Positions 45,911 through 49,200 of a stretch of DNA of 64,000 nucleotides are shown piece by piece. A program made the position numbers and the translations under genes. The stretch is taken from positions 1-64,000 of the forward strand of contig NZ_JAQITE010000007.1 in the NCBI RefSeq assembly GCF_028618595.1, given 5' to 3'. The notes under the pieces were generated by a model that ran no database searches, had not been told where the DNA came from, and saw nothing but the letters and a program-made list of their open reading frames with translations. Within the stretch, counting starts at the first letter, position 1, and each line of letters opens with the position of its first letter. The stretch is from Bartonella sp. AU18XJBT (GTDB lineage: Bacteria > Pseudomonadota > Alphaproteobacteria > Rhizobiales > Rhizobiaceae).

Positions 45911-46002
45911 AATTTTTTTATTGATTTAGAATTATTACTTATTTTTATAAAAATGAATTTATAATAAAGGAAATCCTTATATATTGATTTTGAGTTTTTG
46001 TA

Positions 46003-46014
46003 CAATACGTATTG
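46003..46014. promoter_or_regulatory. 12-base perfect palindrome upstream of the orphan exported protein
   Basis: CAATACGTATTG is perfectly palindromic and lies about 107 bases before the next start codon. It shares the string TACAATAC with the inverted repeat in front of the MerR-type gene. Whether it is bound by a regulator is unknown. Confidence 0.25.
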
Positions 46015-46120
46015 ATACAGTGAAGAAAATAGATTAGATGGCGTAACTGCAATGAATAGCACTTGCATACAATAAGCTTCTGTAAATTTTGTAAAAAACA
46101 AAAATTTAGGTAAAGATAGC

Positions 46121-46960
46121 ATGCTTTCTTCATTACAAAAGTGTCTAACTATCGTTTTTTTATTACTCACTTTGATGCATGGCGTAAAAAACGCTCACGC
46201 TGAGTTGTTTTCTGAGGAACAATACCAACATTTAAAAAACAAAAGAAAGAATATTAAAGAGAGAATACAATTTATTGAAGAAAGTATATCTCATTTAGAT
46301 ATTTGGGAAAAAAATATTTCTAAAGCAGAATACTATGAGCGTTTGCGGGAACAGAATAAGTTGTACAAAAAACTGAAAACTATGAAGGATGAATATTATA
46401 ATCTTGGTTCGAAATTACAGGATCTATTTGAAAAAAAACAAAAAATTATCTCTAGGATACATATAGCGAGAGAGTACGAAGTAGGGGAGTATGAAGAAAA
46501 GTTGATTAAAACAAAAGACTATTTAAAAAAAACACAAATGTTTAATGAATGGGGAATGAATGAGAACAGTGGAAGTGATGATGAGATAATGAAAAATTAT
46601 CTCATGTTTATTATTGCTTGCAACACGTTAGCGGATACACTGCAAAGTGATATAGGTGCTATTTTGCGCAAAGATTTTGATTGGAAAGATAAAGATTTTA
46701 GTTGGGCAAAAGACGCAAACCATTCAATAAGTCCTAATTTAGTCAGGGATATTAAAGAATTACTAACAGATGGCTCTTATAGTTATGAAAAACAAATATT
46801 TGACGATATAAAAAATAGTCTTACAGGAGATAATTGGTTTGTGAAAAATGCACCTGTGTTTTGCAGAACCATTAAGGAAGTACATAATATAATGCTTCCA
46901 AACAAGAGAAAGAATATTATAGATCGTATGCGTTCTCATGTTGAAGAATTATTCAATTAA
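46121..46960 (+). CDS. Exported coiled-coil protein of unknown function
   Basis: A 279-residue protein I do not recognise. Residues 1-27 are a clear signal peptide (positively charged start, hydrophobic core 'TIVFLLLTLMHG', cleavage expected after AHA). Residues about 30-125 are charged and heptad-like ('QYQHLKNKRKNIKERIQFIE', 'YERLREQNKLYKKLKTMKDE'), suggesting a coiled coil. The C-terminal half is mixed, with single cysteines at about 170 and 246 that could form a disulfide. It has high Lys and Ile content, is flanked by AT-rich DNA and has no operon partner. A secreted or periplasmic lineage-specific protein is plausible, perhaps related to host interaction, but this is a guess. Confidence 0.7.
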   Translation: MLSSLQKCLTIVFLLLTLMHGVKNAHAELFSEEQYQHLKNKRKNIKERIQFIEESISHLDIWEKNISKAEYYERLREQNKLYKKLKTMKDEYYNLGSKLQDLFEKKQKIISRIHIAREYEVGEYEEKLIKTKDYLKKTQMFNEWGMNENSGSDDEIMKNYLMFIIACNTLADTLQSDIGAILRKDFDWKDKDFSWAKDANHSISPNLVRDIKELLTDGSYSYEKQIFDDIKNSLTGDNWFVKNAPVFCRTIKEVHNIMLPNKRKNIIDRMRSHVEELFN

Positions 46961-48588: not shown

Positions 48589-49200
48589 ATGTCGCATAAA
48601 AATGTTTATTCTGCTGTTTCAGTATTAGTTGGAGCAGCTGCCCTTTTTCTTATAGCTGGTATTTCTGCAAATGCGCAAACTTTATCACAAGGTTGGTACA
48701 AAGTTTGCAGTAAGCAGCATGATGTTGATATTTGTAATACAATGAATACTGTATTATCGAATACGGGACAACCTTTAACGGCTTTTAATCTTGTTGAAAT
48801 AAAAGGGAAGCAAAATGAAAAACGTATAGGTATTCAAGTGCCTACAGGTCGTTTTTTGCCAGAAGGTGTTCAAATTAAAATTGGTGATGACTTCTCTAAA
48901 AAAATTCCTTATATTATTTGTAATGGACCAAGTTGTATTGCCAATGATGTCTTAGATGATAAGCTTATAGCAGCTATGAAAAGTGGTACAAAAATGGTTG
49001 TAACCACAGTTAATTTCCGTGGTTCAGCTAATCCTATTGAATTTTCTCTTAATGGATTTACAGCAGCCTATACCGGTCCTGGTATGGAGGAAAAAGATTT
49101 CCAACAAGAACAAATAAAGCTGCAGCAAGCAATTCAATCAAATCAAAAAGAAATTGAAGAACGTATGCGGGTTGAGCAAGAAAAAGCAAAACAAAAGTAA
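48589..49200 (+). CDS. Invasion-associated locus B (IalB) family exported protein
   Basis: A 203-residue protein with a signal peptide (residues 1-29, cleavage after ANA). It continues as an IalB-family domain: 'GWYKVCSKQHDVDICNTMN', 'RIGIQVPTGRFLPEGVQIKI', 'PYIICNGPSCIANDVLDDKL' and 'SGTKMVVTTVNF'. The four cysteines (two pairs) are those expected to form disulfides in the family. The founding member, next to ialA, promotes erythrocyte invasion in Bartonella bacilliformis; this copy is a paralogue in another context. The last 35 residues form a Glu/Gln/Lys-rich helix not typical of the core domain. A terminator follows. Confidence 0.88.
   Translation: MSHKNVYSAVSVLVGAAALFLIAGISANAQTLSQGWYKVCSKQHDVDICNTMNTVLSNTGQPLTAFNLVEIKGKQNEKRIGIQVPTGRFLPEGVQIKIGDDFSKKIPYIICNGPSCIANDVLDDKLIAAMKSGTKMVVTTVNFRGSANPIEFSLNGFTAAYTGPGMEEKDFQQEQIKLQQAIQSNQKEIEERMRVEQEKAKQK

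What the first reader, a model, noticed from the sequence alone, without database searches (positions are those of the whole stretch)
46121..46960. Orphan exported coiled-coil protein in an AT-rich accessory pocket
It has a clean signal peptide, a charged helical N-terminal half and two lone cysteines, no recognised domain, no operon partner, and flanks that look like decaying DNA. An IalB-family protein lies about 1.6 kb away. Lineage-specific exported proteins of this kind in host-restricted bacteria are often host-facing.
Basis: partly seen in the sequence, partly recalled or inferred. Interest (0 to 1): 0.5.

Follow-up and report, generated by a model that had tools for sequence, protein, structure and literature searches.

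The report
Swapped-allele exported protein of Bartonella
A real, intact gene for an exported helical protein belongs to an apparently undescribed, Bartonella-only protein family that also travels on prophages, and its variants have been swapped between Bartonella species, as expected for a protein on the front line with a host or with phages.

Summary
The ORF at 46121-46960(+) is real: 279 aa, signal peptide (AHA|E), helical hairpin, and a helical C-terminal domain with two cysteines. It is neither orphan nor debris. By my count 35 of 71 Bartonella genomes hold it or its remains between mfd and ialB (14 intact, 21 decayed); 108 other genera sampled gave none. It evolves under purifying selection but much faster than its neighbours (dN/dS 0.26-0.66 against 0.02-0.16). 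Two deep allele classes conflict with the flanking genes' tree (AU p<1e-8). Against one close relative identity is 93-97% in mfd, 53-69% across the ORF, and 82-99% in the downstream gap: a swapped allele at a fixed site. The C-terminal domain is shared with a second Bartonella family (profile E 4e-13): chromosomal putative lipoproteins (15 of 20 keep a lipobox-position cysteine) and prophage cargo beside terminase (0 of 18). No library or fold search matched convincingly. Host-facing is plausible but unproven; superinfection exclusion is the main rival. The IalB neighbour is a core gene and says nothing about function.

The parts
46121..46960 (+). ORF, 279 aa exported protein
   Evidence: orthologues; dN/dS
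46121..46201 (+). signal peptide, residues 1-27, cleavage predicted after AHA
   Evidence: read from sequence; A27 invariant in the 13-row alignment A2
46202..46474 (+). N-terminal charged helical hairpin, residues 28-118 (mostly an extension relative to the paralogues)
   Evidence: AlphaFold; coiled-coil-type structural matches only; alignment A3
46577..46954 (+). C-terminal all-helical domain, residues 153-278, shared with the paralogue family
   Evidence: profile A1 hits window 46460-46906 at E 4.3e-13; hhalign 98.9%; AlphaFold
46619..46621 (+). Cys167 codon, invariant in the rows compared
46862..46864 (+). Cys248 codon, invariant in the rows compared; disulfide with Cys167 inferred, not shown
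45911..46120 (+). conserved AT-rich leader; promoter assumed; weak ribosome-binding-like sequence at 46108-46115
   Evidence: alignment A5; promoter-like sites not above shuffles
46150..46900 (.). allele island: identity to relative G052 is 53-69% here, with 83-97% just upstream and 82-99% in the gap downstream

Best explanation
The gene encodes a Sec-exported envelope or secreted protein, not a pseudogene. Shown by sequence: it belongs to a Bartonella-restricted superfamily with a helical C-terminal domain and two conserved cysteines; it occupies a fixed chromosomal site between mfd and ialB-rne; intact copies evolve under purifying but fast selection; deeply different alleles conflict with the flanking phylogeny, best read as exchange between species; and the gene is decayed in many genomes. 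Inferred: the cysteines form a disulfide that staples the C-terminal domain outside the cytoplasm, the helical hairpin is a stalk or oligomerisation arm, and the variable surface binds a partner that differs between strains or hosts, so that swapping whole alleles is favoured. The partner I judge most likely is a mammalian host component (antigen- or adhesin-like protein); a phage component is the main alternative.
For: Locus copies: 14 intact and 21 decayed of 71 genomes by my count. dN/dS 0.26-0.66 in 78 pairs, against 0.05-0.16 (mfd C-terminus, 36 pairs) and 0.02-0.13 (ialB, 36 pairs). Allele exchange: G000-G052 ORF dS 0.81 with flank dS 0.17 and 0.09, and the reverse for G066-G052 (ORF dS 0.17, mfd 0.54, ialB 0.19); tree conflict, AU p 9e-52 and 3e-9; identity drop confined to the ORF. 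Genus restriction: 0 of 108 other genera in a 247-genome family sample. 15 of 20 chromosomal paralogues have a cysteine at the lipobox position, suggesting membrane-anchored relatives.
Against: No evidence here of surface exposure, expression or host binding. Decay in 21 genomes shows that the gene is dispensable. Many relatives ride in prophage cargo slots, which points at least as much to phages. Whole-gene dN/dS never exceeds 1; sub-region values above 1 (1.16 and 1.48, N-terminal part, two pairs with low dS) do not prove positive selection.
Confidence: 0.45

Rival explanations
1. Phage-facing: the superfamily are superinfection-exclusion or immunity proteins. Prophages carry non-lipidated exported versions as independently transcribed cargo; the mfd-ialB copy is a chromosomal version that blocks phage or gene-transfer-agent particles at the envelope, and alleles differ in what they exclude.
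For: 15 of 35 full-length relatives lie within 2.3 kb of a terminase-large gene or gene fragment, all 15 on the strand opposite to it. In four other prophages the same slot holds different cargo: an exported protein, an exported and membrane-spanning protein, a polytopic membrane protein and a ribbon-helix-helix protein (the last on the terminase strand); a PemK-like gene lies beside one slot. Full-length terminases fall in two groups, 84-99% (prophage class) and 68-76% identity to the query.
Against: PADLOC gives one weak match for the window protein (LmuB, E 5e-4, 16 bits, over the helical region) and none for two relatives. One prophage-borne relative searched by tblastn found no record in the phages collection. 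Prophage cargo can equally be host-directed. The locus copy has no phage neighbours.
Confidence: 0.3
2. Ordinary periplasmic structural or stress protein under weak constraint: fast divergence and loss reflect low importance, and the allele conflict reflects background recombination.
For: 21 of 35 loci holding the gene are decayed; dN/dS is raised but under 1.
Against: Weak constraint alone does not explain ORF dS below flank dS for one pair and far above it for another, a divergent segment confined to the ORF, or the conserved leader. Background recombination was not measured at other genes, so this is not excluded.
Confidence: 0.18
3. Two old tandem paralogues at the site with differential loss, rather than allelic exchange.
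For: G053 holds an inverted intact copy and a second, decayed copy in the same gap.
Against: The alternative alleles are collinear with the same leader and start, and G052-G066 ORF dS (0.17) is lower than their mfd dS (0.54), which differential loss does not produce. Both G053 copies fall in allele class A.
Confidence: 0.07

Closest known systems
Variable Bartonella lipoproteins VblA/VblB (PMC11466379; section 11 and passages read)
   Same: Bartonella-specific, exported, unknown function, variable; lipoproteins, as the chromosomal paralogues here appear to be
   Different: Reported with variable poly-G tracts (8-11). No run of six or more G or C lies inside the window ORF or 13 relatives. In the wider loci the decayed G040 locus copy does hold runs of 7 and 8 G, and the decayed G023 copy a run of 6. 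Whether Vbl is the same family is untested: no Vbl sequence was available.
IalB family (PF06776), neighbour at 48589-49200
   Same: Exported, 1.6 kb away
   Different: The ORF has no IalB match; the neighbour is a core gene
Superinfection-exclusion lipoproteins of temperate phages, such as Ltp of Streptococcus phage TP-J34 (PMC3952083; start of abstract in a search listing only)
   Same: Small exported proteins carried by temperate phages; some relatives here look like lipoproteins
   Different: No convincing sequence match to any family searched; activity untested; the window gene is chromosomal
BaGTA and Bartonella prophages (PMC3610622, section 9 and passages; PMC2697382, passages)
   Same: The cargo slot lies beside portal, terminase-large and small genes in an order like that tabulated for BaGTA
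   Different: Slot-bearing copies belong to the other terminase group; 'lipoprotein' and 'mfd' do not occur in the main text of either paper

Membership tests
Two-cysteine exported Bartonella superfamily (defined here) | C-terminal helical domain recognised by the paralogue profile | tested here: met
   E 4.3e-13 with a profile that held no locus-family row; hhalign 98.9%
Two-cysteine exported Bartonella superfamily (defined here) | Two conserved cysteines in that domain | tested here: met
   invariant in 13 locus rows, 10 paralogue rows and the joint 7-row alignment
Two-cysteine exported Bartonella superfamily (defined here) | Disulfide bond between them | not testable with these tools
Putative-lipoprotein branch of that superfamily | Cysteine at the lipobox position | tested here: not met
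   window has AHA|E; 15 of 20 solo paralogues have the cysteine (8 by pattern, 7 by eye), 0 of 18 prophage-slot ones
VblA/VblB lipoproteins | poly-G tract of 8 or more in the gene | tested here: not met
   none in the window ORF; a decayed orthologue (G040) has runs of 7 and 8 G
VblA/VblB lipoproteins | sequence homology | not tested
IalB family | PF06776 match | tested here: not met
   not among the ORF's matches at E<=1, while the neighbour matches
VirB5/TrwJ minor pilin (considered for size and helices; recalled) | match to a type IV secretion Pfam model | tested here: not met
   no such model among matches at E<=1 of the ORF and seven paralogues
Superinfection-exclusion prophage cargo | gene carried by a prophage in a cargo position | tested here: not met
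   window copy is chromosomal between mfd and ialB; 15 of 35 relatives meet it
Superinfection-exclusion prophage cargo | blocks phage entry | not testable with these tools
   needs experiment

The most novel reading that the evidence does not exclude
The superfamily is a Bartonella arms-race system in which chromosomal lipoproteins are the exposed targets (phage or gene-transfer-agent receptors, or host-binding antigens) and prophages carry soluble, lipobox-free copies as decoys that change who can enter the cell; the mfd-ialB gene is a soluble copy fixed on the chromosome, joined to a helical stalk and kept diverse by allele swapping, perhaps through the genus's own gene transfer agent.
Probability: 0.12. 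Interest if true: 0.75.

Novelty: new variant of a known kind. Interest (0 to 1): 0.45.

Why it matters
It turns an apparent orphan into a testable family: one locus, two allele classes, 14 intact and 21 broken copies in 71 genomes, and mobile relatives on prophages. If host-facing, it is a candidate for host specificity in a genus known for host restriction; if phage-facing, it would be an unrecognised envelope exclusion family in bacteria that exchange genes through a gene transfer agent. Either way, allele exchange confined to one gene marks a place where selection probably acts.

Tried and rejected
Pseudogene fragment: rejected, since full-length homologues exist and dN/dS is below 1. Housekeeping periplasmic family: no convincing match in Pfam, NCBIfam, PHROGs or PDB sequences; I read the weak matches (best E 0.0046 for the single protein; 0.0011 for the profile, a chain named sc-CC-8-58) as coiled-coil noise. 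Fold search: the listed rows for the window model mostly cover its residues 1-113, so its C-terminal domain was barely tested there; the paralogue model gave no Foldseek row at E<=0.001 in PDB or BFVD and VIA-align Z at most 3.3. That model has mean pLDDT 69.7, so the absence says little. Phase variation by homopolymer slippage: in two class-B copies with one main frame break (G055, G067) the break is not in a long homopolymer; other broken copies were not examined this way, and the decayed G040 copy does hold G runs. Collections: one prophage-borne relative had no match in phages, the ORF none in plasmids; the reverse searches were not made. Viral contigs: none with the locus profile A2, three with the paralogue profile. 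Promoter scan: 16 sites against 22.4 expected. Literature: no description of the gene seen in the listings of six searches of the open-licence library (one search asked only for Vbl); other papers were not searched, and only three papers were opened. PMC6257571 is not held.

Choices and dropped rows: the 35 'full-length' paralogues are my selection from the listing (near-complete, open); the 19 terminase places used for distances were typed from the listing, which was itself cut, and each paralogue's end was taken as start plus 610. G020 is absent from A2 and from the dN/dS set (recognised as intact). The mfd and ialB comparisons each hold 9 of 13 genomes, because the script dropped short stretches and those with stops. 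The tree used 35 paralogues, 3 viral contigs and 14 locus proteins cut to residue 96 onward; UViG_L112 is identical to a genome row and UViG_L080 nearly so, and rows are related, so slot and solo counts are not independent. The tool warned that long branches meet there. Allele classes were named after seeing the trees, so the AU p-values are descriptive.

Full report
The observation. The ORF at 46121-46960(+) is present exactly as stated, 279 aa, ATG start. Gene order is lolD, sdhE, mfd, the ORF, a 1.6-kb gap, an IalB-family gene, and rne on the other strand (the names lolD, sdhE, mfd and rne are my reading of the proteins, not a library result). The ORF is 30.0% GC against 37.2% for the window; leader and downstream gap are 22%. 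The signal peptide, read by eye, ends AHA|E at residue 27. Cysteines are C8 (in the signal peptide), C167 and C248.

Sequence libraries. No match of the ORF reached a curated cut-off in Pfam or NCBIfam; PHROGs gave weak matches (best E 0.0046); PDB sequences gave E 0.015 at best for the single protein and 0.0011 for the 13-row profile, to a chain named sc-CC-8-58; PADLOC gave one weak match (LmuB, E 5e-4, 16 bits). I read these as coiled-coil noise.

Orthologues. The five named relatives are all Bartonella: B. queenslandensis (two records), strains AU16XJBT and MM73XJBT.G, and B. grahamii; the last two copies are broken. In the whole-genome search 43 of 71 Bartonella genomes had some match at E<=10. 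From these matches, their position next to ialB or mfd and inspection I count 14 of 71 genomes with an intact locus copy, 21 with decayed remains and 36 with neither; 8 of those 36 had only weak matches or matches of the paralogue type. Of the 21 decayed copies 18 lie on the same contig as ialB, within about 3.3 kb; G028, G067 and G068 do not; G067 lies next to mfd, the other two were not checked further. Among the 14 intact, G035 and G051 lie next to mfd with ialB on another contig. In family-wide samples of 247 genomes (109 genera, four listed genomes of the window's genus) only the window's own genome matched the paralogue profile or the locus profile at E<=0.01.

Selection. In 78 pairs of 13 intact copies dN/dS is 0.26-0.66, against 0.05-0.16 for the mfd C-terminus and 0.02-0.13 for ialB (36 pairs each, 9 of 13 genomes). 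So the protein is maintained but changes several times faster than its neighbours. No pair exceeds 1 over the whole gene; the N-terminal part exceeds 1 in two pairs with low dS.

Allele exchange. Close relatives can carry very different copies: G000 and G052 differ at dS 0.17 (mfd) and 0.09 (ialB) but 0.81 in the ORF. Conversely G052 and G066 are closer in the ORF (dS 0.17) than in mfd (0.54), with ialB at 0.19. In trees the ORF splits into two deep classes, whose carriers are mixed on the flank tree, with 7 changes of class on 21 rows. Holding six class-B rows together is rejected on the flanks (AU p 9e-52), holding G000, G052, G040 and G021 together is rejected on the ORF (p 3e-9), and so is holding the 13 rows of the main flank clade together (p 1e-53). 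In 150-base steps G000-G052 identity is 93-97% in mfd, 90% and 83% across its end and the leader, 53-69% from 46150 to 46900, 82-99% in the gap and 97-99% in most of ialB. Relative G066 shows the same drop (50-70%) between more diverged flanks; G021, G040 and G054, which carry class A, do not; G021 and G040 lack parts of the gap. I read this as replacement of the ORF by homologous recombination. Tandem copies with differential loss is less likely, though G053 holds a second, decayed copy.

The wider family. Weak C-terminal matches led to exported proteins of about 200 aa. A profile of ten of them (A1), without any locus row, finds the window ORF at E 4.3e-13; profile-profile comparison gives 98.9%; both cysteines align. 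In the tree the 14 locus proteins form one group (100/100) apart from 38 paralogues. Of 35 full-length genomic paralogues that I selected, 15 lie within 2.3 kb of a terminase-large gene or fragment, 13 of them at 516-569 bases, and all 15 on the opposite strand. Full-length terminases group at 84-99% and 68-76% identity to the prophage query; I take the second to be the gene-transfer-agent copy (gene order of BaGTA from PMC3610622 section 9), but did not verify it gene by gene. Four other prophages carry different cargo in the slot: a 177-aa exported protein (L134), a 140-aa exported and membrane-spanning protein (L136), a 212-aa membrane protein (L137), all opposite to terminase, and a ribbon-helix-helix protein on the terminase strand (L139); a PemK-like gene lies beside the slot in L112. 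Of 20 solo paralogues 15 keep a cysteine at the lipobox position (the script's pattern flagged 8; I added 7 with F-G-C or W-G-C by eye); of 18 slot members, three of them viral contigs, none does.

Structure. AlphaFold with a seven-row alignment gives pLDDT 78.6 and pTM 0.65: a helical hairpin up to residue 118, then a helical domain at 153-278. The paralogue model has pLDDT 69.7 and a similar order of helices. No informative structural match.

Function. Shown: export signal (by sequence), family, conservation, fast evolution, allele conflict, decay, prophage-borne relatives. Inferred: disulfide, stalk, variable binding surface. The partner is unknown; I put host first (0.45) and phage second (0.30). 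The host preference rests on genus restriction and general knowledge of Bartonella; the phage reading has the more direct neighbourhood evidence for the relatives, but none for the locus copy itself.

Literature. PMC11466379 (section 11 and passages) names variable Bartonella lipoproteins VblA and VblB, possible relatives. No G or C run of six or more lies inside the window ORF or 13 relatives; the decayed G040 copy has runs of 7 and 8 G and the decayed G023 copy one of 6. PMC3610622 (section 9 and passages) and PMC2697382 (passages) describe BaGTA and prophages. I saw no description of this gene in the listings of six searches.

Noticed in passing
L067, L068, L080, L103, L111, L112, L133-L137, L139: Variable cargo slot in Bartonella prophages, about 0.5 kb upstream of terminase-large, mostly on the opposite strand, holding unrelated exported or membrane genes, or a ribbon-helix-helix gene, in different prophages.
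   Followed up: partly
L149:6798-8713 (G053): Two copies of the locus gene: one intact and inverted relative to mfd, one decayed in mfd orientation; both in allele class A.
   Followed up: partly
L114:8435-9172 (G000 contig C13): The only other family member found in the window's genome, a 245-aa lipoprotein-like protein, with a DnaJ-like gene nearby (L114:6354-6869), as also in L070.
   Followed up: no
L027, L029, L030 (G010, G042, G037): In three genomes the decayed locus copy is followed by a solute-binding-protein-like gene on the opposite strand before ialB.
   Followed up: no
L074:2711-3232 and L134:444-977: A second exported family (FCCSKE stretch, about 175 aa) occurs both in the prophage slot and close to a chromosomal paralogue.
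   Followed up: no
L012:1854-1869 (G040): Runs of 7 and 8 G lie inside the decayed locus copy, unlike in the intact copies tested; slippage there was not examined.
   Followed up: no
window 26771, 27482, 30795, 39371: G tracts of 7-8; the first two lie in a respiratory-complex-I-like gene and the third just after another; the last was not looked at.
   Followed up: partly
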